Positions 23,067 through 64,000 of a stretch of 64,000 bases of DNA are shown piece after piece. The translations under genes were made by a program, and so were the position numbers. The notes beneath the pieces are model-generated. The model was not told the DNA's origin. It did not search any database and saw nothing but the letters and a program-made list of their open reading frames with translations. Positions within the stretch are counted from its first letter, which is position 1. The number at the start of each line of letters is the position of its first letter. Origin of the DNA: Branchiostoma floridae (lineage: Eukaryota > Chordata > Leptocardii > Amphioxiformes > Branchiostomatidae); the NCBI RefSeq assembly GCF_000003815.2, contig NC_049982.1:6741283-6805282 (forward strand), written 5' to 3'.

Positions 23067-24049
23067 CACTTGACCCTGAGCGTATGGATTAATGGTAAGG
23101 CTTGTAATAGTTATCCATTAGCAAGTGAAAGGATCAAGCTAGTGGTCACTACGGAGGACAGTACTCAGGCTATGCAATGGTCGGGGAGAGAACTTCTCGC
23201 ACAAATCGAGCCAAAAATCAATTATTTCAAAACCCTTTTTCCTCTGAAAACTATTGATCGTATACGACTCAATTCATGTATCATAAGTACTTTTACGTAA
23301 GTAGACGTCGGAGCAGTCTAGGTCATAAATGTTCTAGTCTCAATGACATCCCGTCATAAAAACTAACGAGAGACATCCAGCCGAGAGAATGAAGAAGGGG
23401 GATTCTGAACAAGACCTCTGAATACATTTCCCCAACCCAGACAGGTGATGCTTGTATTTTACATATTGTGTAAAAGCTGGACGAGCTGCTAAAAATCGTC
23501 CGAAGCCCGAGTAATCACAAGGACGTCGGCCGTACTTTGTCCGAAAATGCCTATTTGGAGCTCGCCGAGCTCAGTTCATGATTTGTGACGGGCACATTTT
23601 GTGGCAATCAGCCTGGATTCGAAAACCTTGAAGAAAAGTTTTATGGCGCTTTACGTCATCCCTCGTGACGGGACGCCAGATAATTGGCAGTCACGGGATT
23701 CTCCAGAAGCTAACGCTAACAAGCCTGGGTAGTACGTAATCAAGTTTTCAATTGAATAGCAATGGCTTTGTAATACGAATAAGGACATTGTCTCCCTCAT
23801 ATGTTCTTTTTGACATACGAAAGTTCTTTCTTTGTCCGTGGACTCATGTTTCCCCATAGTTATAGGGGCATGATGCCAATCTACGGTGCTTTTATGAAGA
23901 ATACAAAGATAATACCAGTATGTCTCCCACACAGAAAGATTGATGTAATTTAGTTTTGCTTTTCATTCTTTCCCTCTGACGTTTCAGTCTTACAGGACCT
24001 TATTACCACCCACGGAACCGATTTGGGCATAAATATATATATATATATA

Positions 24050-24285
24050 AAAATTTCAGAGCCTTTGAAGTATCTATAACTTTAGAAAGTTTCAGAACCT
24101 TAAGCTTGTTAGGACCTATAAGAAAACTTCAGAAACTTAGAAGGAGATATATAAGAAACTTTCAGAAGCTTCAGAAGCTTTGGTGCCTAAGCAGGACCTT
24201 TAAGAAAGTTTCAGTGCCTTAGTAGGACCTATTAGAAATTTTAGGACCGTTTTAGCACCTATTAGAAAGTGTTCAAACTTTTCCC
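24050..24285. repeat. Degenerate tandem repeat just upstream of the signal-peptide exon
   Basis: Irregular copies of a 30-40 bp motif around AGGACCTATTAGAAAGTTTC continue almost to the splice acceptor at 24294. A TATATAAAA box-like sequence at 24044-24052 could alternatively act as a local promoter for the exon that follows. Confidence 0.55.
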
Positions 24286-24294
24286 TGACTGCAG

Positions 24295-24391
24295 TGACCA
24301 TGAGGACGATATCCGTATCCGGGGTGGCTCTGCTGCTGGCCGTGGCGATCGTGGTGAGCTCGCAAGGACTGGCGCACGGGTACAACTGCAA
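24295..24391 (+). CDS. Peptide precursor, exon with signal peptide
   Basis: The acceptor CCTGACTGCAG ends five bases before ATG, so an upstream untranslated exon is needed unless transcription begins locally. The coding part is 30 codons plus two bases, ending ...GYNC, with donor AA|GTACGT. It starts [19 protein letters not shown] and small residues (SSQGLAHG) fit a signal-peptidase site. Confidence 0.7.
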
Positions 24392-27300
24392 GTACGTCTT
24401 CTCATTACATGATGGTTCATGGAAACGTAGCCTATGTTTGTTTTGCTGTTCTAATTGATACGTGGCTACAATGTCTTTTATGCTTAAGTACAAGCAATGC
24501 AATGTGATGATATACGAATGTTTTATTCTTACGCTTATCGTGAAAATATACTCATATCATCAAGAACTCCAGATTTTCTTTAAAACGTATGTGGTTCAAC
24601 GAGTCACCTACAAAATAGAATGTTCTGAACTTGTCCTGAAGTGATATCCATTTTAAGACTTGTTACAATCTTGTTCTACTGTGTTATGTCATTTTTGACC
24701 ACGTCCGTAGCTAGCGGTGGTTGACGCAGAAGGAAACACAAGACAGCAGACGTACTAAACTGTTACATTTCAGTTGTAGATCATGTCTTCTTCGAAGGCT
24801 CGAAGCAGAACATGGTCAACATTTTACACCGGACACTGTTGATTTATTAATCCAATTATTCAGCTCAGGACAACTGGGTTGCCCCTTCAACATCGAAAAG
24901 GATGAAATTCAGAGCAACACATAGAATCTTGTTCTTGTCACGGAAGCTATGGAGTGGACTGATGTGAACATTGAATTTTGCTAACATTGTATTAAATCGA
25001 ATCATTCTCTTAGATCTTGTATGCATATTGCACCTTATGATATCAATCCAGGGCCACTTGGTGAACAGAATGATGCTGGCTGGTTGGTGTTTATGGCTTT
25101 ACTTTTTTTATCGTGAACGCTCTACAAATGAGTGTTCATAGAATGATAGACAGAGGTTCCCGTCCTGATCATCATCATCATCATCATAATCATCATCATA
25201 ATCATCATCATCGGTCGGCTGCGGAGCAGTCGATCACAAGTCTTGTCCACTTCTGTCTGTCCGCAGCCAGTGCAGCAATAGCGGCAGTGCTCGGGTTGCA
25301 TTCCGCATCCCCAAGCAGGTTCTGTATGTAGGTTAGATAGTTTAAGTTGGTCCTGATACATGTACCTGCGCCGTTCCCCTGCGGTTGTTTTAACGCCAGT
25401 CCGTCTGGGTTTACCTCACACTCACAGCCCACCATGGAGCCGGAGATGTGCCGTCTCCGATTGGTGTTCAGGGTTTTATTATCGCCTCATTAAGTTGGAC
25501 TCTCACTGCGCTTGGGGCACCGTTGCGGCACTGCGGGGTTCGTTCACTGCGGCACTGTTTTCTTATTTTGGTGATTTTTTTATGATTCAGATATTGCGTA
25601 ATACGTAAAAGTATAACTTAGAAAACAACAAAATACACAAAATGGTAGAAAATTAATTTTTCATCTCTGAAATTCGTTGAGTCATCTATGAACCCCGCAG
25701 TGCCGCACCTGTGCCACAAGTGCAGTGAGAGCCCACCTTTGACCATGTACAAATGAGTGTTAATAGAATATATAGAGGTTCCTGTCCTGATACCTACGTC
25801 GTTCAGCCTGCGGTTGTTTTAACGCCAGCCCGTCTGGGTTTACCTCACACTCACAGCCCACCATGGAGCCGGAGATGTGCCGTCACTGATACCACCGGCT
25901 TCGGCAGGAGGGCGACGGACAACCAGACTCTGGAGTAAGTCATTCAGGATAGGTGCTTAGCGCTCATCGAGATTTCTCCTTCCTCTCTTCAGGAACGGAA
26001 CTCTCCACTTACTGATAGAGTTACGTAACATAGGGACCCTTAACCGTTGTCGCCTGCCTTTGAAGATAGATTGGGTCCCTCTTGCACGACACGCATGCTC
26101 ACCAAGTTCCTTCTACACATGATTCAGGCCTTACATAAATGTCTCAATGATATCTTGGTTTGATGCAGTTCCGGTAAACAAAAAGCTTGAGTTGATACTT
26201 CTCAATGTAATAACGTACTGAGATTCACTTACTCAGGTATTTTGTCATAAAGTCTCCACATATTCACATACTTCAATGATTATGAGAAAAAATACCAAAG
26301 CAGAGTCTTTGCTTGCGCAACCAACTTGAAGAATTGGTGCTATTACTCAAGCCGCCTGGAGGCGCGCGGATTTTCTTTATTCTGTAACATGAATCTTCCA
26401 CACAGATCGATAAGACAGAGTAGGTTGTAAAAGTTTATAACATAATCTCTTCAATGGAACAACGTAAAAGGGCCACGCAGATAACATAATCTCTAACATA
26501 TGAAGGATACATATAGGCATGGAATGCCGGCAAGCGTAGGCGGTTAAAAGGGTTGGACAATCTACATGTAGATAGCCACCGGTTAGTACCGCCACATTTT
26601 AACAACATTTTGAATTGAAGGATTAGCCCGAAAGTTAATATGTGTTCAACTTGGTAGAAATCATTCTTTTGCACATCTATGTGCAACGCTTGCAGATAGA
26701 TGTGCAAAAGTTAGGTGCGACGGGTCCTTCGCTGTAATGTAACCAGCTGCTGCCGCGTCGCGTGCCTGCGAAGCTGGTGTGTTACGCCGAAGGGCGGTTA
26801 TACGGGCTATATAGATACAGATACAGATACAGATGAAGCAAAGCTTTGTTGAACTGTGATTTCAACACAAAACCTTTACGCACCAAATTTCTTTACTGCT
26901 CTACTCTGTCAAGAAATGAGCAATCTACCGCTTCCGTGACGTCACATTATGCAGATACAATACGTGACATGGTAAGATGTGGATCAGAAAGTTGCAGAAA
27001 ATTCATGACAATATATACATACAAGCCAAGTTGTAAGCATCTTTCTAACGGGGAACCTTTTCGCGTGCCTGTGTTACACTAAGGTGCTTCTTTAATGTTA
27101 AACTTCACGCCATTCCCTTAGCACGTTTTACCTCAAAATATGCGCACTTTTATCGGTTTGAAAAGTTGCCTATATCTACAGCGTTCAACGGCCCTTCGGC
27201 GTAACACACGGGGCACGGGCTTCTGATGATGTGTTGCCTTGGGCACCATAATTACGCTCTGAGAAACTCACTTCTCTAACATCTAACCTTCTGTACATTT

Positions 27301-28814
27301 TTCACTTCTTGCAGGTATACTGCACCGTCTGTCTTATCTCCATCTCACCGTTTGTCTCCTTACTAACACATTGTTACGGGCCCGGGTCCATTTGTTGTAC
27401 GATATCGCAAACTTGAAGCATTTCTGGAAAGTCGTGCATGTTTAGCACAAGATTCAGCTGTCTTGTTCCCGAAAATGTGCCTTGTTAGATCTTTTTTCAA
27501 CGGCTGGTTCTGTCACAGCCTGTCCTAAGACGCCAGAACCGTGCGACATCCTATGACGTCAGACAACAGCTTCAATAATATTGTTCTCAGGTCAATGTTT
27601 GATGCCATATATGTCAATGTTTGATGCCATTAAAAGTCACCTTTCTAACATCTTTTCTTCTTTTCCAACAAGACATTCCCCACTTCTAACACCTATTCTT
27701 CTTTCCTAACATGACATTCCCCACTTCTAAATTCGTATCTCTTCTAGTCTCATCGCCATTACTAACCAGTTTCTCTGCCTTTGTTCTGCGCTGCTGTCGC
27801 TAATAACAGAACGCCGTGGAATGAAAATTGTCAAACAAGTCGCACAGCAGACTTTGGAAAGAGGGTTCCTGCCTCACAACTTTCTCTTAGAGAAGTACTA
27901 CAGTAAGTATGCGCTGTGACGTATCAAATATGATGCAAGAACGAAAAAGGATCAGACACTGAAACTCACTTGAGAAAGAGTGGGCATATTTTAAAGCCTT
28001 TTCTGACAATGACTTAATTCTTTTAGTATCAGCTATAAGTTAGACCCCACCGCAGTTGACACGCACTTTTCAAATAAAGTCTCAAAGTCTCCCTGGATGC
28101 TTTACAAATCCGTGCGTTACTTTCAGTGTGCAAAATTAACAAAAAAAATTATGTCAAAAGCACTCCAACCTGAAGCACTTATTTCACCGCACATCCGAGG
28201 CCGTTCTTTAACGGCTTACTTGGCGTTCTTCATCGCATCAGTACTACCAATTATGATACCTATGTGCTGATTGCTGTTACTATTTTTTCAGACAGAAATT
28301 TCCTAAACGAGTCATTATCTTGCAATATACTTTACTCATTATCATACAATATACTTAACTCGATAAATCTACCAAAGGAAATGACTAGTATCAAGTGACG
28401 CAAGTGACTCATTTGTAAGTATGAAGATAGATTATGTAGCTGTATCCACATTCATACATTTACAGTGGAAAAAATCCCTATATTTGAGTTTTACCCTGTT
28501 TGGGTAGGGTGTGTGTGTGTTTGTAAGTGTATGTGTGAACACTTGTGTGTGTGTTTGTGTTGGGGGCGGGGGGGGGTGATGCGTGTCTGCTTGTGTTTGT
28601 GCGCCCGTGTCTGTGTTTGTGTGCGCGTTTATGCAAGGACGAATGCGTGTGTGTGTGTGTGTGTGTGTGGCTGTGAGTGTGCGTGTCTGTGTCCCACTAT
28701 GTGTGTGTGTGCGTGCTTATGTGTGCGTGTGTGTGTGTCTCTGTGTGCGTGCGTGCGTACATGTACCTGTGTGTGTGTGCGCGTGTGTTTGTGTGTGCGT
28801 ACATGTACGCGCGC

Positions 28815-28852
<38 letters not shown>

Positions 28853-29328
28853 ATGTGCGTGCCTGCATGCGTGCGTGCCTACATGTACGTGTGTGTGCGT
28901 GTATTGATCAAACCTTCCGTTTTCGCCTCCTTACAGGAGCGGCCATCCTCCCCTCAGCGATGTCGACACAGCGTATGAAGATGACGTAAGGAACTTGTTG
29001 GTGCAGATTTTGAGGTTCGCTGACTTTTATTGTTCGGAACGAATATATGATTAAATCACTCCTTAGCAAATGTCTAAGAAATAAAAAAAGTGATTACTAG
29101 AAAAACAAAGAAAATGAAAGTGAAATGTGAGAGGAGCGAAACGTCAGGTGGATAGTTTCTCCCGCCACGCGGTCGGTAGTACCATTAATCCCTTATCATC
29201 TCATCCGTACTGACGTTATTTTGTTTGTACCCGCACCACCACAGGTCCCACATGCGCCCAAGGACGTCTCGCCGCTGGACAGTGCTGGAGGACTGACACA
29301 CCGGACATGGCGTCACAAAATCACTTAA
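24300..29328 (+). CDS. Putative secreted peptide-hormone (neuropeptide) precursor, five coding exons, 131 residues
   Basis: Coding exons are 24300-24391, 25857-25934, 27810-27902, 28937-28985 and 29245-29328. Internal phases are 2, 2, 2, 0 and the total is 396 bases with one stop. Residues 1-27 form a clear signal peptide with a hydrophobic core ([11 protein letters not shown]). Exons 2 and 3 encode two related cassettes exactly 26 residues apart: P33-W34-x3-C38-x4-T43-x2-F46-G47-R48-R49 and P59-W60-x3-C64-x4-T69-x2-F72-G73-K74-R75. Phe-Gly-basic-basic is the usual signal for dibasic cleavage and C-terminal amidation, so two peptides ending in Phe-amide are predicted (...TDTTGF and ...SRTADF). 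Cys30 and Cys38 could pair in the first, and an internal Arg-Arg at 36-37 is a further possible cleavage site. The C-terminal third is acidic, then basic, and unrecognised. I do not recognise the peptide family. The exon chain is inferred from splice sites and phase only. Confidence 0.62.
24774..24924 (+). CDS. Possible alternative terminal exon of the peptide-precursor gene
   Basis: A near-ideal branch point and acceptor (GTACTAAACTG...TTTCAG) precede a 50-codon frame that is in phase with the signal-peptide exon and ends in a stop. The product would be an 80-residue secreted protein with a Cys-rich start after the signal (NC-N-CRSC) and a final Cys before PFN. An ATTAAA signal follows at 24991. 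The frame length alone is not significant, so the call rests on the acceptor and phase. It has no amidation signal. It could be a chance exon-like sequence. Confidence 0.3.
25123..25462 (+). pseudogene. Duplicated, apparently decayed copy of the cassette exon and its 5' flank
   Basis: The blocks 25123-25169 and 25351-25462 match 25749-25891, which holds the acceptor and start of the first cassette exon. This copy keeps the acceptor (TCACTCACAG|CCCACC at 25427/25428) and reads [16 protein letters not shown] in the same phase. It then lacks the Gly-Arg-Arg signal and any good donor. It is split by a 180-bp insertion (25170-25349). It is probably a broken third cassette, or a partial duplication that did not include the exon's end. 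Confidence 0.55.
25170..25349 (-). mobile_element. Short retroelement with (ATG)n tail inside the duplicated copy, 8-bp target duplication
   Basis: GTCCTGAT occurs immediately before (25162-25169) and after (25350-25357) this segment, while the paralogous site at 25749-25891 has it once and lacks the insert. That is direct empty-site evidence. Read on the minus strand the element ends ...CTCCGCAGCCGACCG followed by an ATG repeat, a layout typical of SINE or truncated LINE 3' ends. Related tails occur near 49390-49440 and 51015-51056. Confidence 0.7.
25857..25934 (+). CDS. Peptide precursor, cassette exon 1
   Basis: The exon is 78 bases long, exactly 26 codons, with phase 2 at both ends. Its acceptor is CTCACACTCACAG and its donor CTCTGGA|GTAAGT. 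It encodes [15 protein letters not shown], the amidation/cleavage signal GRR, then ATDNQTL. A phase-symmetric exon of one cassette length is what tandem exon duplication would produce. Confidence 0.65.
25970..26275. repeat. Direct duplication, copy 2 (partner at 22765-23066)
   Basis: It lies in the intron just after the first cassette exon. The matching blocks are described for the partner. The exon itself is not included in the other copy. Confidence 0.6.
26666..26710. repeat. Perfect 15-bp stem hairpin
   Basis: CTTTTGCACATCTAT and ATAGATGTGCAAAAG are exact inverted copies separated by 15 bases. Confidence 0.8.
26779..27210. repeat. Inverted-repeat-bounded segment, GTGTTACGCCGAAGGGC ends
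   Basis: GTGTGTTACGCCGAAGGGC near 26779 and GCCCTTCGGCGTAACACAC near 27192-27210 are inverted copies about 0.4 kb apart. GATACA repeats follow the left arm. It may be one element or two oppositely oriented copies of a short repeat. It lies in the intron between the cassette exons. Confidence 0.5.
27810..27902 (+). CDS. Peptide precursor, cassette exon 2
   Basis: The exon is 93 bases long, phase 2 at both ends, with acceptor CTAATAACAG and a strong donor ACA|GTAAGT. It encodes [15 protein letters not shown], the amidation/cleavage signal GKR, then [12 protein letters not shown]. The Pro-Trp, Cys, Thr, Phe-Gly and final Arg positions line up without gaps with cassette 1. Confidence 0.65.
28508..28903. 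repeat. GT-rich compound microsatellite
   Basis: About 400 bp of (TG)n with GTGC, TACATG and GCGC interruptions. It ends about 30 bp before the next exon's acceptor. The long Cys/Val ORFs here are artefacts of the repeat. Confidence 0.95.
28937..28985 (+). CDS. Peptide precursor, exon 4 (acidic linker)
   Basis: Acceptor CCTCCTTACAG and donor GATGAC|GTAAGG bound 49 bases that enter in phase 2 and leave in phase 0. The peptide is [16 protein letters not shown]. No known motif was seen. Confidence 0.55.
29245..29328 (+). CDS. Peptide precursor, last coding exon
   Basis: Acceptor CCGCACCACCACAG leads into 27 codons beginning [16 protein letters not shown] and ending HKIT before TAA. A canonical AATAAA lies at 29843-29848, giving a 3' UTR of about 0.5 kb if used. 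Pairs such as KD and HR do not form a dibasic site, so no further amidated peptide is predicted. Confidence 0.55.
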   Translation, partial: VPHAPKDVSPLDSAGGLTHRTWRHKIT

Positions 29329-29842
29329 TCGGGACCGGAAACGGACGTGGCAAAAAGTATGGTCACGTCAAGCGTAACAGAGAAACTCCAACTTAAGCAG
29401 AATCATTGCTCAGAGTAATGAAAAAGACATTGATAAATTTATGTTAGATTTTAAGGCGTTTTGCAGGTTTGCATGATTTAAAAAAAGGAACAGAAACGGA
29501 AAGCGAAGCAATGGCACGCTACCTTTAACTATAGGTTAGTGGTCAGATTATTTATTCCTGACTGCAAGTTTGCAACATAGTAACTATTGTAGGTCAACGA
29601 CCGCAGAGCATTTCTCAATTGGGGCCAATTCCGACCTTCTGCGTCCATTAGCTTTAGTATACAAGAACGAACACGCGAGGGCTTCAGCAGTGAAGCTGTC
29701 ACTTCAGTCCTCATAAGAACCATCCACTGTGTACTTCAGGGTTTCTGTTATACACCATCTCCTGTATTGTGCATGGACGTCACGAGGTCTCACTCAATTC
29801 AGTAGATGTGCCACGATTACCTTTAACCAATTAGCTAGTACG

Positions 29843-33284: not shown

Positions 33285-36200
33285 CTGGAAGAACAGTGAA
33301 AAACAGTTACTATGCAGTACCTGAGTAACATGCTAAGTGTCGCACGCACACTACCATAGCACCAGTTCTTTTGTTGACGAAGAATTGCCACGTTGTGAAT
33401 GTCATCTGGTTGCCTGCATGCATGTGTAGAATTCTATCTAAGAAAATGTACAGTTGTGTTTGAAAAATATATCTATATGTGTTTGTAAACAATTATAATC
33501 CCATTTTGCCATTCGTCGTTGAACATCATCTTTTGGGTTGATGTCATAATATGTATGTACTAGTAGGTATATATAAAGATATTTTGTAGTAACTACGCAA
33601 GGACAGGACAAGGTGGCCAGCACTAGACTAAAATCAAACGTCATAAAAATTACAACGCCTTGAATTATGCGGTCCACATACATATAAACAGACGGCAATG
33701 CCAATGAAGACATAATGTTCTCGACAAAGGTAATAAAGTGAGGTTATATACTTATAATCTTGACTGACCTTGATGGGGTTGTCATACACGGGGTTCTCGA
33801 AGCCCTTGTCCGCCCCCTTGTCCCCGCCGCTGGGCCCGGCACCCCCGCCAGCCTGCCCGGCGGCTCCGGGACGCCCTGCGCCCGCCGGCATCGGCGGCTT
33901 CCTCACGCTAGCGCCGTTCTGTCCGCCCTCCGAGTCCGCGCGGCGCCTGGACAAACGACAAGTACATGTCTAAAAATGACTAAAGTCAACTATTCAAGAT
34001 ACGGAGTCACCTGGTATTGTAAGATAAACACCCATATGGAACCAAATAACTTTTTGCCTTTCACATCAACATCTACTGCAAGACACCCAACAGCATGTGC
34101 CAAAAAAGCAGTTACTTAAGCAACTTAGCTAGGGTATATAAGACCAGTTTCTTCCAGATTACTTCAGTGTCACTGACACTGACGAAAACTAGTGGATCCT
34201 AGTGGAAAAGTCTGACCGTTTCAAAAAAAATGTATCCAGTTCCTTGAGTAGCTGCTTTTTACCTGGATGCCTAACCTTCATTGACGTAACCAAAAGCATA
34301 ACTTGCTTGTTACAATATGAGTTCAGAAATTGACCATCTTGTCTTCTCATGTTGCAGTACAAGTTTTTGAGGCTTGTGTTTGACCACGCCTTCAACACCT
34401 GTCACATATGAGTACTGTCGTCAATTATTGTCAAACAAACGCCGCAAAAAGAAGTGCCCCCAAGAATCACAATGGTGCCATCATTTAGTTGATATTGTAT
34501 ATATCTTAATCCGTATTACGGATTTTGAATTATTCAGTTTCCAAGCAGATGTTGGGAGGTAAAAATTCTTTAAAAATCTCGTTTTGCAATTTTTTTTCTT
34601 TCTGACACGCATAACCTCCCGATGAGAATTGCACGAAAAGTGGTATTTACCAGTACCGGTAAATGCCAGGTAAGGCTGGTAATGCTTGCCAAAATTTAAA
34701 CATTACCAGACATACCTGGCGTTTACCGCGATTGGTAAATACCACCTTTCGTGCCACTGAAAAATGTAAAACTGAACAACGGTTTTTCCCTCCTAGCATC
34801 TGCTTGGAGACTTAAATTATTCACCAGGAGGTAAGTCTGACGGAGGCGGTTCTGGGGCGGCCGGCTGTATCGCGCGCGGGACCACTGCTGCAAGACCTGG
34901 GGAATAAAGACCAAGTTTCTGCCGTCATTTTTCTCGGGCATATGTCACCGCGCGCTCATGTATGAGCTCTGCAGCTTGGAAGTTGCATCTGTGCCGGCGG
35001 AATGCATTCTGAAGCAGGACTGTAACTTCCCGACACAACAGGGAATGGAATGGCACAGTCCCTGACCGACAGTTTATCAATTGGCCATTCTGGACAAGTT
35101 TGTTGTGCACCAACCCTTTTTACTTGGGACAAGCTCAGATTGGGCTCTTATCTGTTAATCACGACTTTCGGAGTGGACCGGTCATCTGTAACAGTCACTC
35201 GACAAAAATTCAGTGGGAAATTGTCAATTTCGATTTGTTTCACTTCGGGTCGATCCTTCTGTAGAAATGTAACATGTTTGTAATAGTTAACCATTAAGTC
35301 TTACTTCTTCATGATGATGACGAGGGACACCAGGATGGCGATGAAGAACACCGCCCCGCCGCCGGCCCCGGCCGCAATGTACAGCACGGTGTTCCCGCCG
35401 GACCCTCGTGCTGGCAACGGCAACAGTACCAAGTATTTGTTACATGTACAAAATACGGACAAGTGTACGCTTTAGTGTAGTTCATGACGAAGAAAAGTGT
35501 AAATAAGTAATTCAATATGATAGAACAATTCTTCAATCAGTGACTCTTGAAAACATGTAAAATATATACATAAATTATGATAGGGTGCATTTCTGATGAA
35601 GCATGACAAACAAATAGGAAGTCCACCCGGGGCCTGTGTAGAAAAATGTACCCTGCGGCCTTATCTATACCAGTATAGCATCTCTACTAGTGATTGTCTC
35701 TATATATGAGGACAACATTACCATCGTCCAGATAAGGTCCCATTGATAAGTAATTGACCCAAGCACCAAGAGTCATGCCTATAGTCTACCGTGATGGTTT
35801 TCTGTGCGTCTTTGTCTTGAGCTGGTCTCTATAGATAACGTTTCCGTACTTACCGACTTGGGCGACGTTGCCGATACCGGAGTTCTTGATGGTGAGACCC
35901 TTCACTCCGTAGGTCGGGTACGGTCCCATGTCTGCGGAAGAGAAAGCATCAATTAAGGAATAACGGCAACAGTTCTCAAGCTAGCGTTTGCCTATTCATA
36001 TATTTCCAGCCGTCCATGGTTGCCCTACATCCAACGTACATTTGCCCAGTTTTGTTGATAGGGGCCCGGTAGATCAAAATAAGCAACCGAAAATGGAGAG
36101 CCAGTGATAGCTAGGTTGGATGGAATCTAGGCTAGTTAGTGTAATCTCCAAGCAGATCCTACGGTATCAAAATCTGGCAAAGGAGTGTCGTCGGCCTCTG

Positions 36201-39200
36201 GTAGCCAATGAACACTCCTAGGCCGGCTACACTCGACGCGATTTTCTACGCCAAACATCTGCTTGGAGACTGTGCATGAGTTGCCTACCTCTCTCGATGA
36301 CGGAGGCGACGTGCTCCCCGACCTCCACCGCGGCCATGCCGTTCCGAGCTCCGGACACGTCATCCACCAGCACCAGCTGCACGTGCCCGTCCGCCAGTTT
36401 ACTCACACGGCCCTTCACACGGCCCGTGTACTCACGCACCTGTCATGACAAGAACAACATACAGTCAAACAAACAAACAAGCAACATCTGCACGTGACCG
36501 TCAGCCAGCTTACTCAAGCGGCCCTTGTACTCACGCACCAATGGGACAAGAACAGAATATAGTCAAACAAACAAACAAACAAACAAGCAACAGCTGCACG
36601 TGCCCGTCAGCCAGCTTACTTACTCATGCATGCAGCACGATATTGCCACTAAAACGCCAGAACATGTCCTGAAGTCTTAGATGACGTTACCTTGGGCACG
36701 AAGTCCACCACCAGACGGTCCTGGAACGCCATGATGTCGAAGGTGTCGTCATAGTTCAGCAGGAGAACTGAACCTGTGAGTGTTAGAAGGGTGGGGGGGG
36801 GGGGAATAGATGTTAGTAGCTGTCATGTAGGTTATGATTATAAAATTGGGAACCCTGGAGTGAAGGCACGAAATGTTGTTTGACTACGGTATGTAAATGG
36901 AACATAATTTCTGCTACGATATAGTTTAATATCATTTGACAATACGTTAATTTTGTACGCACGCTTGCCGTTAACGCTTTCAAAGAAAAAGTTTCCATTC
37001 AGCGTCTTTTTGCCTGTGAATATTTTAAAGTGACGTTCTCCAATGCGCGCCAAAAAAGTGCAGCGTTAAAATTTACATGTATTTACGTGTATGTCGACGT
37101 CACATTATTGTATGTAAGTAGGTGCCAAGGTGAGTTCTGCAACTGATCATGAGTGGCTCTTCTTACCAAATATGTAAGAATACACAATTTGAGGACTGTA
37201 CTGAAATGACTGAAAACATACGTGTAAAGCTACAAGCAGCTGTGAAAATAGGCTACCAGTGTCTATACTTAAGGTATCTCATAGCCGGATCCTTACATCT
37301 GCTTGGAGATTGAGACTAAGCACTTACCGCACATGGGGCAGCAGCTACCGCGGGGGGTGATGGGACTGCTGCAGGTCAGAGGAGGACAGTTGTCTCCGTA
37401 CAGGTCACAGATCAGGTCCATGTGCTGGGTGGAAGGAGTGGTCAAGATTTGCTTCCTGAGAAACAGCTTCTCAAGTCACTACAGACTACAGAAAGATAAC
37501 TAAAACCCACCAATTAGGATTGAATGTGCGCCCAAAATATAGGGTTGTCGACATTGAGCGCCATCCGACTTCCTAAATAGTACCTTGCCTGGGTGATCTC
37601 AGGTGAAAGTGTTTCGGTGTTGGCAAAGACGCCTTTGCAAACGAACTAGGCTTGCACTTAGGCTTGGGCTAGAAAGCTATACATCGCCTTTCTGTAGTGC
37701 TTTACAAAGTATTCTGGCACGGGGTTTCTATGCGAACATGTAACAAAGCTGTTAAAGTTCCCATAGTCTCAATCTTTTATCAGGAAATAGCCAAATTTGT
37801 CTTTTTATCTCTTGAACCTGAAAAAGTTCACTTACTTCCTCGTTACCGCAGTAACAGCCGGACAACTCCTTGCAGTCCTGCCCCATCACAGCGATGTCCC
37901 CTGACGGTCCCAACTTGAACTGCATCTCACCGTTCTCCGACCTCAAGAACTGGTGGAATTCAGGCTTACGCTTGTAAACCTTATTTTGAAAACAAAAGAA
38001 AAAGAAAGTTAATGAAGGTTTGCGTTAGACATCCAGGTAAACAAAATGCAAATACAACTCAATCTCTACAACTGGATAAAAACGGAGATTTACTTCCGGA
38101 CGTTTCGAGTGACATCCGCATCTTTAGCGTCACTAGTTCAGAGCTGTGTGATGGATGTCACTAGAAACGTCCGGGATTAAATCTCCGTTTCTATCCAGTT
38201 AAAGAGATTGAATTGCATTTGGAAAAAAACGAAGAGAATATGGGTTTGTCCACTGGCCCTTGATATTCCATGATTCTCTTTTGTCCACAGTTAGTTGTGA
38301 AATATAACTAATTGATTCGCAATGAACGGGATAAACCTCAATCTGACACGACGATTTGCTTGTCATTCCAAGCCCTAAATAAAGTCTAAATGTTCCTTTG
38401 GTGCTTCCAATGAGATTTTTTAGATTTCCCTTACGGGACAACACAAAAAGAGAACACAACATATCTTTTTTTCAACACATACCTTGCCGGTGAAGTCCAC
38501 GTGTTTGACCTGCTTGCTGTGGTCCAGGCGCACCAGGTACGTGGCGTTCTGGGAGACAAAGTCGAAATTAGGAAAGAAAATGTAATGTCGTTCAGAACGG
38601 TGTTATCACTAGTGCTTGTTACTTATTTCATATGATGCCATGAGCAAGTTCTATCTTTAAGTTGAAACTATCGTGTGAGAGTTCTGAATGATATGTCATC
38701 GTTTACATGAATTCTATATGTGCATTCATTAGGCCACAGCCCACTAATACATTCATTTAATATATAGAACATTCATTTAGTATATAGAAAACATGAAAGG
38801 AAAGGCTGTCGAAAGTTAGATACCTAACAAAAACTCACATTGCCAGCATAGTCTGACTTCCAAAGTGCCCATCTAATGATCTTAACAGATTGCTAACGAT
38901 AGAAAGTGTTCCTACAGCACCGAAACAAACCCTGCTGACCTTTGACCTCTCTAAACAAGAGTGCATCTAAACTGCTCTTACTCTATAGTGTACAGGACAC
39001 TCTAAACACTCTGCTAACAAAATAAATGGCCAAACCATTACAAGTAATTTCTTGCTCCAAATTGCCAACATTCTGCAAGAAAAAGACTTCTTTCACTTAT
39101 TATAGCATGGCATGAAAATGCACCCATGCGCATGGCTTTGATTGTGATCTTTTCCTAATCTCCAAACAGATCTTGCTGTGGCATCAGATAGTATCACAAG

Positions 39201-42200
39201 CTTGGGAAGGAGTTAAGCCGGCAGAGGAGCACCACCGCCCACAGCGAAACCGAGGAAACTCCTCTACCGGCTTAACTCCTTCCCAAGCTTATGATAGTAT
39301 CTTATGCCACAGCAAGATCTGCTTGGAGATTAACCTTTCCGCCTTACCTCCGGAAAGACGACGGTGTCGTGGGTACAGGGCACGACCTCGGCATGCAGCA
39401 CCGGGAACCCGTCGGTGTCATCCCCAGGGCTGGTGGGGGAAGAGTCGTCTGGGGGGAGAGGGGTCAACGGCAAAACTTAGCGTGAAGATGTTAGCTTTTC
39501 ATTGAATAATCTGTTTTTTTTTAATACATAAATAATGAGATAGATGGATGAATGAATGAATGGATGGATGGATGAAAAGCAAAACTTTGTGTGAAGATTT
39601 CAGCTTCCCATTGACTAATCTGTTTTTGTAAAATAAATAAACAGTGAGATGGATGAATGAGTAGATGAACAGCAAAACGTAGTGTGAAGATTTCAGCTTC
39701 CCATTGACTAATCTGCTTTTACAAATATACAACCATGAGATAGATGGTTGGTGAATGAAGGGACTGAAGGCAAAGCTTAACTTAGAGATTTTAGCTTTTC
39801 ATTGAGAATTACATTGATCGACTCACCTTCGGGTGACATCGGTTCCACCAGGTTCCCGTCATCCTCCACGCGCCAGTTGTGCGGGTTGAGCCAGTCTCCC
39901 GGCTCTCCGCCCACGAACCTGTTATCTGGGGGAACATGGAGAGACAATGTGATCAGAGAGAAAAATTCCAGGAATTTGGGGAATTCTTGTCAAACGGACA
40001 CACACTATACTATTAGGCTAGCCTCTGAGGCGTCGCCAAAAATCGAGGGCCCTCAGGCACGCAGACAGACAGACGCGCGCGCGCACACACACACAGCACG
40101 GACACGCGTGCACACATAGGGAGTATACAGACACAAACACACACTCACTCACTCACAAAGTATAGAGACACTCACACAGACGCACGCACACGCGCACACA
40201 CACATAGACGCACACAGAGACAGACAAATACAAACAAAAACACACAATTTTTGATACACGTGGACAGAACCTTTTTACTTCCTTTCGACCCTTACCTCCA
40301 GCCATGCAGGCGGGGTCGTCGGTGAACGATCCAAAGTTGACCTTCAGGTCATCCGCGAACACAATCTCTCCGTTCAACGGGAGGACCTGAGGTGGGGTGG
40401 GAATGAAAGATTGGGCGAACGGTAAAATGCAGCACTCAACGCACCGCAAATGTCGAACAGTTTCTTCTGAATGCCAGGAAAATGAGCTCGCGTCATTAAG
40501 AACATATTCTAAGGCTAACGTCACATTTCCAAACCGGGGCCCGGCCGGGCTGTTTGTGGAAATGAAAAATTTATACATACGTAGAAATATACACAAATAA
40601 TGCCCACGACTATTCTCTTTATGCCTTGTGTAGATTGGTTTCTTTTATATCATACTTTTCGTCCCCGAAAGCTGTCCAGCTAGGCCCCGGGTTGAAAATG
40701 TAACGTAGGCCTAACTAGTCGGCCACAGAGGTACTCACCAATTCTCCCACACTGACGTCATTCTGCACGAACACTGCGTACGGGTTGGGCTGTGGGGACA
40801 CAAGAGAGTGGGGCATGATTCAGTAGCGATCTCCAAGCACATCTTCCGGTGACAAGATCTTACCTGCTGCCACAAAGGTTCATGGAGACGGTCAATGACT
40901 GGCAGTCACAATCTTGCTACCGTAACATCTGCTTGGAGATTAGGCCTATCCAAGGAGTTGATAAAAGCCCCAATGCTTGGACAATCCTGTAACTACATTC
41001 ACGTCGCAACGAGAACTAGCAGCTAGAAGCAGCTCCGAGCATTACATGTACAGCGCTGGGCACCGAAGCGTTGGTGAGCAGGTACTAGTACATTGTAAAG
41101 AGTAATACGTATATGACTATAATGACTATGGACGTTTGTGACAATTGTCTGATCCATCGTCAGAAAAGCAGACAGGTCAAAAAAAGTTTGAAACTAAAAG
41201 GGCAACATTTTTTAATAGAAAATGTCAGATATCGATGTTTCCCTTCCAGTATTTTGCATTTTGTCAAGCAACTTGCACACAATACTATACAATTAGTCTC
41301 GCCCCTAAGGCGTCGCCAAAATGACAGAAGAAGAAAAAGGAAGAAGAACACACCAGCAAAAACTGTATGTATTTCCTTCAAGAAATATAAGTATCCACCC
41401 AAACACCTGCTTAAAGATCAGGAGTCGTGGGGGTCTCTTTTATAACACAGTCTTTAGCGTGACGCAACAGTACAGGGATTGGCTGGTACCGATGCATGAC
41501 CAGATACACAGTCCTGTACCAACAAGGCAGGCTAGGGGCGGTCCGTTTGTGCTTTTGTCACTCTTTGATCTTGAAACATTCAGTCAGTCTCACAAGTATC
41601 AACTGGAATTCTACCATCGCTTCATACTACGTACGCAAAAGGGACTGTTGTAAAAATCTATTATAAAGTTTCAAGTCTCCCGTTTGAAACATCGCACCCC
41701 CAACACCCCACAGAAAGCACAACTGATCGGTCCCCTTTAAGAGGTGTCATATTTCACTACAGCAGGTACGATGACAGCTTGAGGAAGGAAGTGCGTCTTC
41801 AGCAGAGAGCAAGTACGTCTTCGTTCCGTAATCACAGTCTGTCGAAGATGTCCGAGATATATACATGAGCCAAACTGAAGTTAGAGTGAAGCTTTTAATC
41901 GTATTTCTACAAAAGCTGGAGTTGAAGTGTGCGCACAATCTCTCTCAGGTGAGTTGGCTTCTGTTTACCTGTGAACCAGGTGGAGGTGTTACAGCGTTCA
42001 GCCCCTTTGCAGCGTGAATGTCCTTGGTATGAAACAAGTCGGATGTGTACCTCCCAGAACAATGTTGCTTTTAGAGTTAGCACAAAAATATCGATTTTAG
42101 TACTTTGCGTTTATACGACAATCAACACCTCTAAAAATCGTTCCTCTTGCCCTTGAAAGTAACGTGGAACAAACGCGCGTACTGTACTTCGTCAATAGAC

Positions 42201-45200
42201 CATTGTGGTGTTGGGGAGAAAGCGCGGGATGTTTTGTGATTTTTGTCGGCTGCTCAGAATTCTTCTGCGCTCCAACAAGAATTGTCTATGGATAAATATA
42301 ACCTACTTAGCCGTGCAAGTGCAGGTTACTGCAAAGACACGCCCGGCACTCCTTTGGTTATCTGTCATTCGTAGAATGATATCAAGTTCCCTGTAGGCTT
42401 CCTGTTCAAGCAGTCATGGGCACTGCTGGCATTGTTTTGAAAGTATGTGGATCAATATGTATTGTTTCTTGAATGTCCAGTTAATTATTGACAATTAGTT
42501 GACGCTAAACTCCTTTATATTACATCATATTATGCCCAGACTGAAACATGAAATTGTGACTACGGAAAGAAACAGCGGTCTTACGAAGAAATCACTGTTG
42601 ACAATATCAGATTCAGATTCAGCTTTATTACTCTTTGGCTTAACACCGGTTAAAATGTTTACATGTAGCAATGATAAAGAGATGTTGATACGTGAAATAT
42701 AGTAATTTCCGTGCGCGCATCGCTAAAACAAACTCAAACCTGGATTTAACGTTATAAAGCTCTTAGTATTTCTGGCATTCTATTACTTTTATGGGTTTAC
42801 TAAATCTTCGTCACTTTCACTAATTGAAGGGGATTTGCGACTTCAGAAGGGCTGTTTATAGAACAGTTCCTACCAATATGTTGTCTTTCAGTAAGGTTAC
42901 ATTGTTTCTTTAATCGTATTACAAATGACCTGTCATTTCTCGAAAGTTTAGATATCTTACATCTGGAATAAAAGTTTTGTGGAAGGGTGTTACAGTGCAT
43001 ACATTACTAGTGAGACTTTTCCCCCAGTATTCGTAACCATCTAATATTATTGCTAGCAAAAAATCCAATTAAGTAGCGAGACCAGCTGTGACAAAGTGTG
43101 TTAACGCCTCTTGTGAAATCTCAAGGGCTTTTACATGTAGGTCTACTGTAACATGTTTCTTAACCCGAACCCGCAGTGTCAAGTATGTCTCCGCTGAGTA
43201 ACCAATTGCAACTGAGATCAGAAAGCTGAGATCAGAAAGATCTGTTTCTAAGTTGTCTGTTTTGTTGTCTTTTGAATCATCATCATGAATTCAAGAGCCA
43301 CAATAATTGATTTGGGTCGCTGTACATGTAAGCTCGCTCAGGAATCACCGTATAGTGGAAAAACGCATTGGGGACTTTCTCAAACCATGGCTATAACCGA
43401 TTGCGTTTTCAAACCATAATAAACGAAGTGATGTTTGGTCGGCATGACAGGTTTACCCTCAGGAGGGATTATCAAATATTTAACCTAGTTTGTCTTGTCA
43501 CATTTGGGTCAATGTTTCCACATTGATAACAACAATGAGCGGTTCTTGGATGCAACTAGTCAATGATTTCCTGAAGGGTCGATAGGAGCAAACTATACAA
43601 ACAAATCACTTATTTTCAGTTCTCATCTAGCACGCCAATTGAAAACAAAAATCTAACAGCATTTTGCTTACAGTATGAATGATACACACTTATCTTTTTA
43701 AGCAGATGTAAGGATTCGGCGCATTGTCAGTGTTTTACGTCTTTTTATTCGGTATTTAGAACTTTTTTCCAGCATTGAACATTTTCAAAGACTCGCCTCC
43801 TTCTAAGAAAAGGTGTTCTACCAGAAAATAGTGTTAAATGTTGCAAAAACAGGCGCAAAACACACACTGAGAATTAGTTGGATCATTACATCTACTTGGA
43901 GAATAGCCATACAGACATACATGCACCTGGCGACAACCTACAGAGATGAATGTAGCCAATTCTCCAGATGAATCGTTAAACGTTTAACGATTAAATCTCC
44001 GATCCAACGTTACACAACGTCGTCATTTGCGTAAGACGTCACACAAACAGCCTTGTATAGTGCAGGCATTTACGGACAAACAGCGCCGTGAGTGACGGGT
44101 GAAAGAAAGGGTGCCATGGCCCACCTGTAACTAAGTGTGCACAGTATGACTGAGTGTTTGCTGTGGATCGACTTAAGTCCACCACAAAGCATACCTCTGT
44201 TTAAACAAAGTTTGCTGACAAATGAAATGTCATGATACAGTATACACACATCATATAGGCTTTGAACAAATTAGCCGTCTTTTGTGACAATTATAAACCC
44301 TGTATAGACATGATTAGATACGGTGTTTCTTTCCAAACTAGTCATGAAAGACGAGACCAACATGGCTGTCCGCATGTGCCTGTTCTTGCGTAGACTGTGA
44401 CGTATGTGTGTATTTGTCATCAGTACGCACACAGAGATCACAAAGGGTGATTTTAGCGTCCCCTTCAAGTGTGTGTGGCCACGGCGGCATGGTCTGCTCA
44501 TACTCAAAACAATCTTTGAAAAAACAGGCAACATTGTTTTGAAACATAATGAACCTAATCGGCCGTTAAAAAGAGGGCTTTCTCTGATATAATTGGAGGG
44601 TGGTGACCTTGTCTGCGACAGGGAGTCTTAAGAAGGTCTGTGCCGTGTCATACCAGGTTCCTTGGAAACTCCCCGTGCAAGAAAAGAATGTAAATATGGA
44701 ACATTGACATAAAACTGAGCAAGCTTTGGGAAGTCAATACGCCTCCACCCGACTCGGGAGTATAATGTCTAGGTGACAGTTCAAAGATCCAGAGGATAAG
44801 AAAGGTAAGATTACTGCTTGATTTAGGAATATTTGAGAACCCGGTCGCGGAGTCGCCCCCTCATGTTGATATTTAGTTTCGACAGTTAGAAAGAAGACTT
44901 TGTAGAAATGGAAATATGGACTCTCTCCCGTTCTCGTTGGTCAGTCAACAACTGATACCAATCTGATTGAGGCTTGCTAAATGAGGAAGTTATTGTTTCA
45001 TTGAGACTTCGCAAGGTGATTAGATTGTGGTGATCGAAAACACAACTGACTGTAGAGGCTACACTAAGTCCATTTCTGTCTTGCCACGTTGTATTCATGA
45101 GTTATTACTACGTCTTTAAACGGTTGGACATCTATGTAAGGGGATACTGTGTACGGGAATAACTTAATTTCAGCTGTGCTATTTGGCGTATGAGATATTG

Positions 45201-48200
45201 CCATTGCCAAGGAAGTATTGCTGCTGAATACGATTGATACGTACAAAAAGCAATTGCGTTTTACATAGCACCGTAAAATGTAGTAGACTTTATAAATGAT
45301 TATACATGCAACATTAAGGACTGTATCTAAATTCCAAATTGAAGGACTATTTATAAATTCAGAGTACTGAATAACCCCAAAGAACCCTCACTTCATCTGA
45401 GCCAATAGGCACAAGTGGCCTTCAAACCCCCATTGGCTTTCCCGCAATATCAAAACTGTGTCTTACTCGGTTTTTCGTCGTTGGTCCCACCAACATCACA
45501 CAGAAGACAGGTAAAATTTGAGGTAAGTCTCAATCGATTTTAGATCCTAGTGTTAGTTACTTAAAGTTTACGTTTATCCATAATTCTACAGGTAGGTTTT
45601 TAGGGTTATAAGTATTAACGTTACATATTGTTTACAAATTTGTTACACTCTTCCATGCGCGCAGGACTTGTTAACAAATTGTTTTCTGTTGATTTGACAA
45701 GACTTTAAGAATGGTGCTAGAATATGTCGATCGTTTGAAGTCAGTCTCGGTTGAACGGAGAATGTGAGGGTATACAGTGTACGGGAGTTACTTAAGCTAT
45801 GTGTGAAAAGACGTGCATCGTATTGGGACGGAAAGGAAAGGGGGTTATCTCAGAACACGTGTTTTGCTCCAAAAGAATATTAATTTGGCATGTCTCTCAA
45901 AAAGTGTCATCAGAGTACCTAGTATGATAAGAAGTAGTAACAAATAGTGCAATTCATGATTTTGTGTCTTTTTGGAAGCCTCCGTAGCAGCCTCTTTTAG
46001 CCTGGGTACCCTCCCGATAGTAGTTCGCTCCAACGTTTATTGGGCCGTTTATTGTACACTATATACAGCCGCTTCTATGCTATTTCGTCAGGGAACTTGG
46101 GCATCTCTAACGCCTGGAATAGTAAACCATTTCAAGTTTCTTGGGTGGCAGAAGAGAACATGATAACCTTTCGCGAACTACTACCCGGCTCTAGATCTGT
46201 GTCGGTCAGTTTGTTCCTGAAGGGAGGGGTATTTACTGTTTTATAATTACGTATGTTCTGATTTCGACCAGATAGGGTAGAAGCCACTTAATTGCACGGC
46301 CTATTCGCCAGTGAATTTCGTGCAATTATCCGGCTGATGCGGCAACAATGCGAAGTTATCTAGCTGGATCGCACCGGTTTGGGATTGTGGGATTTCGTGC
46401 AGTTAACGGAAGTGTGCGTTAATTCGATGTGCAATTAACTGGCTTCTACTGTATTTATAGTTTGACGTGTACGGAACGCTCTGAGTCAATAGCACAACAA
46501 GCCTAAACGCCGGCCACGGATCCTGCCTTTGATCATTCGAAAATAACATAACGTAATCATATTAGGTCATGGGCTAGAATCACGTTCCTAGGTTGGCCCT
46601 TAATTAACCAATTATCTTTCACAGCAATTCTTGGAAATCATTTTGATAGCCCCATAGAAAAGGACAAGTATACCATTGGGTATCATTGCAATACCATAGT
46701 TATATGACTTATATCAAATCCTCCGTCATGTAGCCTTGATACATGCTGCCCTTGGCTCCAAACAGAACCAGATCAGGGACCAGACACGAAACAATATACT
46801 TCTCCCAGAGAGGGGGTATGATTAGATCTGTCAAGGAGGTTCCCTTTTCAACCTCCTTGGATCTATAAAAGAAGTGGTCTCGTGTGTTTTGACAGTAATA
46901 GAATAATCAACTCTACTGTGATTGCTCTTTATGAACAGGTCATTCTTCAAAACAACACGATCGAACAATTTTATCTTCAAAGCGATAAGAGAATCATCAG
47001 ACGAAAACAAAAATCATTGTGAACTCGCGCATAAGGATGGGGAATATTCTAACTTGAAGTTCTCGCAACATCGAACTTACATGTATATTAGTCATGATGG
47101 CCCTGTCAATAACGCCTCCCGTATGTAAGTATACTCAAGGACGTTATCTTATATTGTCGATATTGTGCGTACATTTTTATGATTGAAAGGATGGTACATT
47201 CAACAACGCAAGCGTATTGACAGGACGATCCTGTCAATAGCCTCCGACTGAGAACGAATAGACCATCAACATAACATGTTCTTCAGTAGGTTGTGATTTT
47301 ACGACACCCACCTTTTCCTGGAAGGACACGACCTGTTTGCTGCAGGGCGGCGAGCCTCGGTCCCAGTTGGCGGAGTTCATCCAGTTGGTGTTCTTCAGCC
47401 AGATCTTCTTTGCACCATCGGCCGACAGGACTGGATTGGAAAAAATACAATAACATTGGTTTAATGTAGCAGAAGAGTACTACATTTCTTTTTCGGGAAC
47501 ACCGTCGAGGTCGGTCTCAGATTAAATGATCTGCAGTTGCCAGCAGTAAGTCAGCAAGAAGTACTTATTGCCCGTATATCACAAAAGATTAGATAAGACT
47601 ATTATACAATAGTCAGTCACTCAATAGCAATCACAGCCCTTCCTACTTTGCTCAATACCTAATCATTAATGTTTGCTGAAATGGATATGTCTTTCTCTGA
47701 TTAAAGATGATCGCGTTACAACGCTGTCTCTATAAAAACCCAGGGACAAAATACAATAATCATTTTCCTATATATTATATGTTTTCATTTGAAGGCTGAA
47801 AAGCTTTGGATTGTGTAACGGTGTGATGTTATGAATATGTGCATGGTTGAGTTGGAACGATTCTATTGGTCGTGACGCAACCTGTTGATTGTCTGTGAAT
47901 GACGTCACCGGAATGGTAAGGAGGCTAGCTACGGGATAAAATGGCGACTGTTGGACCCTGGGGGAATAAAGATGGCTACAAGACATTCAGCTATCCTCAG
48001 ATTTCAACTTAATGTCAAAAACCAAACAAAAAGTGGATGCTTTTCAGGGGCTTGAGAAAGTCGTCTGGCGGAAGAGAGATTTTCCTACTGTCGTCCTTAT
48101 TTTTTTAGCTAAAAATTTGTCAGACATATCTACATATATGTGCATGGCAACAATACCAATGTTGGATTTGACAAAATATACAATTTTCTTTCAAAACTTT

Positions 48201-58026: not shown

Positions 58027-58556
58027 CTAGGGAGAGTCCGTCGCGGGTGAGGGGGGAGGGACGTACGGATGGAAGTAACTTCTCGCCGTGGAAGGCGACG
58101 GTGGACAGCTGTCGCAGTTGTTGTCGGACATATAGTGACTCCTGGGCGTCGGAGGAGGAGGGTAAGGGTCCGAGTCATAGTTCATGTCGTAGTACTTCGG
58201 TCTCAACCCCCGCAACGGGTACGGTTCGCTGTCCTCACAACCGTCTGTCGTGCATGGCGTGGGCGGCGGAGGAACGTTTCTGAACTTGTAATGTTTGTAC
58301 GATCTGACAGTCGACGGGCTCTGCGAGCTGCGCGAGGAGTAGAAGAGGTCCGCAGTGTACTGAGAACGGTCGGTGGCGGGACTGGGCGGGGGGTTGAGGG
58401 TCTCGTGGGGGTAGTGCGTGCCCAGGGAACCTGTACTGCTGGAGGAGGCTCCCGTCACGTGCGTACGGTCGTACAGCGGAGGCCCGCAGCCGGATCCAGG
58501 TACAGAACTTGATGATAAACAAGTGGTAGCTGATTTTCCCCGTGACGTGGACAGGC
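58027..58556 (-). CDS. LRP5/6: LRP5/6 last exon, PPPSP-motif signalling tail
   Basis: It begins [17 protein letters not shown], then [20 protein letters not shown], a landmark shared with vertebrate LRP6, then the five PPPSP-type motifs and TAG. Compared with LRP6, the spacing of motifs A to E is kept, with a somewhat longer linker between A and B. Confidence 0.97.
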
Positions 58557-63618: not shown

Positions 63619-64000
63619 CTGGGGATACATGAACAATGTAGAAACATTTCAAATTTGGCAACAGGTTAAATCTTTCACAAGCAAACACACAGACAGAACA
63701 ACTGTGGCAACAGTAGAGTTAAACCTTTGCCATACTGACAGGTAAATTATGCTTTACTGATGAGAGAAATCTAAAGTTGGATGTATAAAATCAAACCCCC
63801 TTTTACGTTAAATAGAATTCTCCAATAGTAAATGACGAAATATGATACACAGTCCTAGTGTAGATTTAGAAAATGTTAAAAAAAAGCAACAATAAATGAA
63901 GACAAAGCTATGTACATACAGTTCAAAATAATCCCATTATAAAACAACTGGCATAAGCTCTAAATTATGTTATTTGTTGACATGATAGAGAAATAAAAAG
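63619..64000. other. LRP5/6: LRP5/6 intron up to the window edge
   Basis: AT-rich with no further exon visible. Confidence 0.7.

What the first reader, a model, noticed from the sequence alone, without database searches (positions are those of the whole stretch)
24295..29328. Undescribed amidated-peptide precursor built from a repeated 26-residue cassette exon
Five phase-compatible exons give a 131-residue secreted protein. Two adjacent exons each encode Pro-Trp-x3-Cys-x4-Thr-x2-Phe-Gly-(Arg/Lys)-Arg at an exact 26-residue spacing. That spacing equals the length of the first cassette exon (78 bp, phase 2-2). Signal peptide, Phe-Gly-dibasic amidation signals and a repeated peptide unit together are the normal architecture of a neuropeptide precursor. 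I cannot match the predicted peptides ([21 protein letters not shown], [20 protein letters not shown]) to any family I know, including vasotocin, calcitonin, CCK, orexin/allatotropin and GnRH types.
Basis: partly seen in the sequence, partly recalled or inferred. Interest (0 to 1): 0.88.

Follow-up and report, generated by a model that had tools for sequence, protein, structure and literature searches.

The report
Two alternative exons, one disulfide ring
An uncharacterized amphioxus gene carries two related exons, each of which is predicted to complete the same disulfide ring, so one gene likely makes two different amidated signalling peptides by alternative splicing.

Summary
Of six database relatives (all Branchiostoma, all 'uncharacterized protein'), three join the signal-peptide exon (24300-24391) to cassette 2 (25857-25934), two join it to cassette 3 (27810-27902), and none joins it to both. 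The sixth joins cassettes 2 and 3, but behind another start and without a signal peptide. Exon 1 ends just after a Cys codon. Either cassette adds a second Cys at the same distance: [22 protein letters not shown] or [22 protein letters not shown]. The best reading is one gene making one of two ringed, amidated peptides per transcript (99- or 104-aa precursors), not a 131-aa tandem precursor. Cassette 3 is identical to B. belcheri (31 of 31 residues); cassette 2 agrees at 19 of 26. No convincing Pfam, NCBIfam or PDB match; no held paper names it. It fails defining features of elevenin, bombesin, calcitonin, orexin and vasotocin. It resembles elevenin genes in having a phase 2 intron inside the ring; elevenin-like receptors are predicted in B. 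floridae without a known precursor.

The parts
24300..24391 (+). Constant coding exon 1 (92 nt): predicted signal peptide [27 protein letters not shown] and YNC, the first ring Cys; ends in phase 2
   Evidence: Reading frame and donor CAA|gtacgt; 29 of 30 residues as in P0001/P0002 and 25 of 30 as in P0004-P0006; hydropathy maximum 3.46 over residues 9-19
25857..25934 (+). Alternative cassette exon 2 (78 nt, phase 2-2): completes ring YNC-NPPWSRR-C and tail [11 protein letters not shown] (form A)
   Evidence: Joined to the signal-peptide exon in P0002, P0005, P0006
27810..27902 (+). Alternative cassette exon 3 (93 nt, phase 2-2): completes ring YNC-KTPWNEN-C and tail [11 protein letters not shown] (form B)
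   Evidence: Joined to the signal-peptide exon in P0001, P0004; 31 of 31 residues identical to P0004
28937..29014 (+). Constant exon 4 (78 nt): shared C-terminal propeptide, ..[20 protein letters not shown]; corrected 3' end
29245..29296 (+). Constant exon 5, coding part with stop: ..[16 protein letters not shown]; corrected frame
25378..25461 (+). Truncated duplicate of the start of exon 2 with its acceptor (exon part from 25428); probable decoy or relic, not part of the product
   Evidence: 96% identical to 25807-25890; reads [14 protein letters not shown].. then diverges

Best explanation
This is an uncharacterized amphioxus gene for a small precursor, likely of a neuropeptide, in which the exon for a predicted signal peptide ends just after a Cys codon and relatives' gene models join it to one of two cassette exons, each predicted to close the same Cys-x7-Cys ring and to supply its own amidated tail. 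Shown by the sequence and calls: the exons, their phases (all introns phase 2), the equal Cys spacing, the Gly-dibasic sites, and relatives' gene models of both kinds. Inferred: splicing in this individual, signal peptide cleavage (after GLA or AHG), the disulfide bond, cleavage at GRR/GKR, amidation of the terminal Phe, and action through a receptor. The two predicted peptides share Tyr-Asn-Cys and the ring position of Pro-Trp but differ in charge and tail (-NPPWSRR- with [13 protein letters not shown]; -KTPWNEN- with [13 protein letters not shown]), so the splice choice would decide which ligand a cell releases.
For: Exon 1 leaves the first Cys plus AA|; both cassettes keep the frame and put a second Cys seven residues later. 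5 of 6 database relatives carry the signal-peptide exon with exactly one cassette: 3 with exon 2, 2 with exon 3; both kinds occur as isoforms of one locus (P0001/P0002, LOC144867639) and both occur in B. belcheri-type sequence (P0004, P0006). Ring Cys, PW, the Thr before the tail end, Gly and the second basic residue are invariant in the 7-row alignment. Cassette 3 is 31 of 31 identical to B. belcheri. The cassettes resemble each other beyond shuffles. A product with both cassettes would hold an odd number of Cys (three).
Against: P0003 joins exon 2 to exon 3, so exclusion is not absolute. Including both or neither cassette also keeps the frame (130 and 73 aa). The relatives are database gene models; I could not see read support, and I saw only one representative of each cluster. 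No transcript, peptide or receptor data were available. No relative outside Branchiostoma was found, so depth of conservation is limited. B. lanceolatum gave only the exon 2 form among the hits. The amidated residue of form A is Met in P0006 (B. belcheri type), so that tail is not fixed.
Confidence: 0.7

Rival explanations
1. One reading: both cassettes lie in one secreted precursor, which is cut at GRR and GKR into two amidated peptides.
For: The join 24391/25857, 25934/27810 keeps the frame; P0003 shows exon 2 spliced to exon 3.
Against: 0 of 6 relatives combine it with the signal-peptide exon. Three Cys would leave one unpaired.
Confidence: 0.12
2. The gene belongs, by common descent, to the elevenin/CCHamide/endothelin group of ringed peptides, and its products are ligands of the elevenin-like or related receptors of amphioxus.
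For: Ring directly behind the signal peptide and a phase 2 intron inside the ring; [quoted passage not shown]). Elevenin-like receptors are predicted in B. floridae but no precursor (PMC10175484).
Against: Seven residues in the ring instead of the eight shared by elevenins; no Arg-Gly after the second Cys; amidation, whereas elevenins are described as non-amidated. No sequence match found. The exact place of the elevenin intron relative to its Cys was not seen.
Confidence: 0.15
3. The secreted ringed peptides are not neuropeptides but epithelial, immune or other extracellular peptides.
For: No expression data; small ringed secreted peptides occur in many roles (general knowledge).
Against: Gly-dibasic amidation sites in both cassettes and a single peptide directly behind the signal peptide are typical of prohormone processing; conserved propeptide.
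Confidence: 0.15
4. Amphioxus orthologue of galanin/spexin, suggested by an LRP5/6-type gene nearby (human LRP5 lies near GAL; recalled).
For: LDL-receptor type A and B domains at 60.9-63.2 kb.
Against: No Pfam galanin or spexin match up to E 10. The gene between is Amnionless-like.
Confidence: 0.02

Closest known systems
CNMamide gene of the termite Zootermopsis (PMC4237046, passage)
   Same: One gene, alternative exons, two related ringed amidated peptides with a shared N-terminal start
   Different: Both Cys of each peptide follow the shared Gly-Asn; one exon is included or skipped and carries a stop; sequences unrelated
Beetle DH37/DH47 gene (PMC6585902, passage)
   Same: First exon spliced to either of two exons thought to come from exon duplication
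   Different: CRF-like diuretic hormones; no ring split by the junction is described
Elevenin genes of protostomes (PMC4237046, PMC6585902, PMC9963005 passages; PMC10175484 introduction and passages)
   Same: One disulfide ring; an intron inside the peptide; phase 2 introns in a cone-snail gene
   Different: Eight ring residues, Arg-Gly after Cys2, described as non-amidated; no alternative ring halves reported in what I read
CCHamide-1 and echinoderm CCHamide-like precursors (PMC5627052, PMC4772807 passages)
   Same: About 100-aa precursor (starfish Arnp25: 97 aa), one ringed amidated peptide directly behind the signal peptide
   Different: Arnp25 ring has four residues; His-amide or GGN-type ends; no cassette exons reported in what I read
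Calcitonin genes of brittle stars and sea cucumber; vertebrate CALCA (PMC5627052 section 2.4.3 read in full; PMC6586643 and PMC6283891 passages)
   Same: Alternative splicing decides which ringed amidated peptide is made
   Different: Each peptide lies within its own exon in the cases read; Pro-amide; ring Cys1-Cys7
Insect ion transport peptide (alternative splicing seen as a passage of PMC6585902; Cys layout recalled)
   Same: Shared N-terminal part with swapped C-terminal part
   Different: Much larger hormone with several disulfides (recalled)

Membership tests
Amidated secreted peptide precursor (general kind) | Signal peptide, Gly-dibasic site, conserved peptide | tested here: met
   Hydrophobic N-terminus (hydropathy only, no dedicated predictor), GRR/GKR in both cassettes, conservation; processing itself not testable
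Elevenin | Two Cys with eight residues between | tested here: not met
   Seven residues in both forms; feature from PMC10175484
Elevenin | Arg-Gly directly after the second Cys | tested here: not met
   Ala-Val / Gln-Thr here; feature
Elevenin | Phase 2 intron inside the peptide | tested here: met
   Exon 1 is 92 coding nt and ends two bases after the Cys codon; feature; exact elevenin position not seen
Elevenin | Activates elevenin-type receptors | not testable with these tools
   Receptor assay needed
CCHamide / GGNG | Ringed amidated peptide directly behind the signal peptide | tested here: met
   Predicted from sequence; feature
CCHamide / GGNG | Characteristic His-amide (CCHamide) end | tested here: not met
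   Ends in Gly-Phe or Asp-Phe before Gly-dibasic; echinoderm members also lack the His, so weak test
Bombesin type | Phase 1 intron in the peptide and phase 0 intron in the C-terminal part | tested here: not met
   All introns phase 2; feature from PMC12002301
Calcitonin type | Ring Cys1-Cys7 and Pro-amide, about 30 residues | tested here: not met
   C-x7-C, Phe end, 19-21 residues; feature from PMC6283891
Orexin type | Four Cys in amphioxus members | tested here: not met
   Two Cys per form; feature from PMC4772807
Vasopressin/oxytocin type | Four-residue ring and neurophysin domain | tested here: not met
   Seven-residue ring; no neurophysin match in Pfam; feature
Galanin/spexin | Sequence similarity of the precursor | tested here: not met
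   (recalled human sequences)

The most novel reading that the evidence does not exclude
A chordate counterpart of elevenin-type signalling in which one gene makes two competing ligands by completing a single disulfide ring with either of two exons, so that a splicing switch, not a second gene, chooses the hormone; the two peptides would be the missing ligands of the elevenin-like receptors of amphioxus.
Probability: 0.12. Interest if true: 0.88.

Novelty: new variant of a known kind. Interest (0 to 1): 0.63.

Why it matters
Amphioxus is a reference for the early chordate neuroendocrine system, and elevenin-like receptors are predicted in it without a known precursor (PMC10175484). This gene offers two defined candidate signalling peptides with predicted masses (2183.963 and 2273.958 Da for the YNC forms). 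If confirmed, it would show a splice junction that runs through a disulfide ring, so that alternative splicing swaps half of a cyclic peptide while the other half stays constant. It also shows how an odd Cys next to a splice site can reveal alternative exons that a purely additive gene model chains together.

Tried and rejected
Rejected: the 131-aa tandem precursor and its tail; galanin/spexin by neighbourhood; membership of elevenin, orexin, calcitonin, bombesin and vasotocin by defining features (membership test).

Led nowhere: AlphaFold of P0001 on a 5-row alignment (mean pLDDT 49.9, pTM 0.20; helices 8-25 and 72-90 only), so no fold search was made; NCBIfam, 0 families for 4 of 4 proteins; a protein search with residues 50-104 of P0001, the same six clusters; a loose pattern search for P0003's other start in the window, no hit; a look through the 10 inverted-repeat pairs found in 24000-29500 for elements that could enforce the splice choice, nothing that I could interpret. 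Mirabeau and Joly 2013 and Jekely 2013 are not held and supplements could not be read, so a mention of this gene there cannot be excluded.
Full report
What is in the sequence. The pattern PWx3Cx4Tx2FG[RK]R occurs at 25861 and 27814 and nowhere else in the six frames of the window; 200 Markov-1 simulated windows gave none. The pattern was written from these two hits, so that control is generous; the looser Wx3C..(4-12)..G[RK]R also gives only these two, against 0.115 expected. Aligned without gaps from the exon start, the cassettes share 8 of 26 residues, which 33 of 100,000 shuffles of cassette 3 reach, and their BLOSUM62 score is reached by none. They are likely old duplicates; in DNA only 34 of 78 positions agree.

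Exon 1 ends ..HGYNC-AA|, two bases after a Cys codon. Joined to exon 2 it reads YNC-NPPWSRR-C; joined directly to exon 3 it reads YNC-KTPWNEN-C. Both joins keep the frame: coding lengths are 92, 78, 93 and 78 nt for exons 1-4, so all introns are phase 2. In both forms seven residues lie between the Cys, Trp is the fourth of them, and Phe-Gly-dibasic follows with Phe eighth after the second Cys.

Relatives. Three protein searches (the 131-aa model, 31 candidates; a 7-row profile of the two forms, 699 candidates; residues 50-104 of P0001, 6 candidates) each returned the same six clusters, all Branchiostoma and all named 'uncharacterized protein'. Candidates must share exact five-residue words, so distant relatives can be missed. 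Representatives: P0001 (B. floridae x B. japonicum hybrid, isoform X1) and P0004 (B. belcheri, isoform X2) have exon 1 + exon 3; P0002 (same locus as P0001, isoform X2), P0005 (B. lanceolatum) and P0006 (B. floridae x B. belcheri hybrid, isoform X4) have exon 1 + exon 2; P0003 (same locus as P0006, isoform X2) has exon 2 + exon 3 behind a different start and no signal peptide. So 5 of 6 carry the signal-peptide exon with exactly one cassette, 0 of 6 with both, and 1 of 6 shows that exon 2 can be joined to exon 3. The clusters stand for one to three sequences each and I saw one of each. Read support for the models was not visible. A loose pattern for P0003's start found nothing in the window.

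Corrected tail. All six relatives read [VL][10 protein letters not shown] after YEDD and end ..RPRTSRRWT[VL]LE[DE]. In the window this needs the donor after 29014 and exon 5 from 29245 to the stop ending at 29296. The products are 99 aa (form A) and 104 aa (form B); in the alignment they differ from P0002 and P0001 only at residue 14.

Conservation. Against B. belcheri-type sequence, cassette 3 is identical at 31 of 31 residues (P0004), cassette 2 at 19 of 26 (P0006), and exon 1 at 25 of 30; the cassette difference has Fisher p 0.0025. Cassette 2 agrees with B. lanceolatum at 21 of 26. The RR inside the ring of form A is RA in P0005 and RK in P0006, so cleavage there is unlikely to be a conserved step; the residue to be amidated in form A is Met in P0006. 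DNA of relatives was not available, so no dN/dS.

Mechanism. Most likely a cell splices exon 1 to cassette 2 or cassette 3; the signal peptide is cut before HGYNC or YNC; the two Cys close a ring whose first Cys is constant and whose second Cys is cassette-specific; a convertase cuts at GRR or GKR; and the exposed Gly becomes the amide of Phe. The shared C-terminal part is likely a propeptide (helix 72-90 in a low-confidence model). Shown: exons, phases, spacing, motifs, relatives' models. Inferred: splicing in this individual, every processing step, and the receptor. What enforces the choice is unknown: joint inclusion or skipping keeps the frame (130 and 73 aa) and the intron between the cassettes is 1,875 nt. 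The odd Cys number of a two-cassette product is the structural argument against it.

What it resembles. No convincing match in Pfam, NCBIfam or PDB. From papers, as passages unless stated: amphioxus orexin-type peptides have four Cys (PMC4772807); B. floridae calcitonin-type peptides have 31-33 residues and Pro-amide (PMC6283891); bombesin-type genes have a phase 1 intron in the peptide (PMC12002301); CCHamide-1 is a ringed amidated peptide directly behind its signal peptide (PMC5627052). [quoted passage not shown] PMC10175484 states that elevenin-like receptors are predicted in B. floridae but no precursor; PMC6188537 counts elevenin receptors among those ancestral to nephrozoans. Our gene shares the split ring and intron phase with elevenin, and amidation and position with CCHamide-1, but fails elevenin's ring size and Arg-Gly. 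I do not file it in either family; 'ligand of the elevenin-like receptors' is a testable guess.

Splicing precedents. Alternative exons that exchange whole peptides are known: termite CNMamide, beetle DH37/DH47, brittle-star calcitonin (PMC5627052 section 2.4.3 read in full). In the CNMamide pair the shared start is Gly-Asn and both Cys come after it. A ring whose two Cys come from a constant and an alternative exon was not described in what I read; the one search aimed at this listed 3 papers, none on it by title or abstract. Ion transport peptide is a partial precedent (splicing; Cys layout recalled).

In print? 0 papers of the held library contain any of three locus names and three peptide strings. 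The listings (amphioxus with orexin, elevenin, galanin/spexin or amidated neuropeptides) show no paper on this gene by title or abstract start; I did not read all of them. Two key 2013 papers are not held.

Surroundings. A truncated copy of the start of exon 2 with its acceptor lies 429 nt upstream (96% over 84 nt), with a 248-nt stretch bounded by 50-nt inverted repeats between the copies. On the minus strand are an Amnionless-like gene and a gene with LDL-receptor type A and B repeats, LRP5/6-like (name recalled from its repeat set and Pro-rich tail). That neighbourhood prompted the galanin/spexin test, which was negative.

Verdict. A real, conserved, apparently undescribed precursor gene with an unusual splice design. 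New variant of a known kind.

Noticed in passing
window 25378-25461 and 25807-25890: 84-nt direct duplicate (96%) that carries exon 2's acceptor and the first part of exon 2; from exon 1 the upstream copy would read [14 protein letters not shown].. and run open for about 60 codons. A truncated extra cassette.
   Followed up: partly
window 25492-25739: 248-nt stretch with 50-nt inverted repeats (88% complementary) between the two copies of the exon 2 start; looks like a small transposable element.
   Followed up: no
P0003 (B. floridae x B. belcheri, LOC144911010 isoform X2): A gene model that joins cassettes 2 and 3 behind a different start without a signal peptide; a leak of the splice choice, a non-secreted form or a modelling artefact.
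   Followed up: partly
window about 33634-47407, minus strand: Amnionless-like gene: Pfam Amnionless at 37317-37424 (E 1.9e-12) and its N-terminal part at 47270-47407 (E 4.3e-6, below the cut-off); an ORF at 33634-33969 ends in an NPxY-type tail FENPVYDNPI.
   Followed up: partly
window about 58027-64000, minus strand: LRP5/6-like gene: LDL-receptor B repeat 63074-63196, EGF-like 61621-61731 (slightly below its cut-off), LDL-receptor A repeats with the best at 60886-60999, and a Pro/Ser-rich tail ORF at 58027-58653.
   Followed up: partly
window 50158 and 52469, plus strand: Signal-peptide-like start MAGAGRLQLPVLALGLLLMAVQG and a Cys-rich exon LRCYSCSATTGHPC.. that look by eye like a Ly6/uPAR-type gene (not tested with Pfam).
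   Followed up: no
window 27310-27902 against B. belcheri protein P0004: All 31 residues of cassette 3 are identical, including 12 residues after the GKR site, while cassette 2 differs at 7 of 26; the part behind GKR may have a role of its own or the exon may carry splice signals.
   Followed up: no
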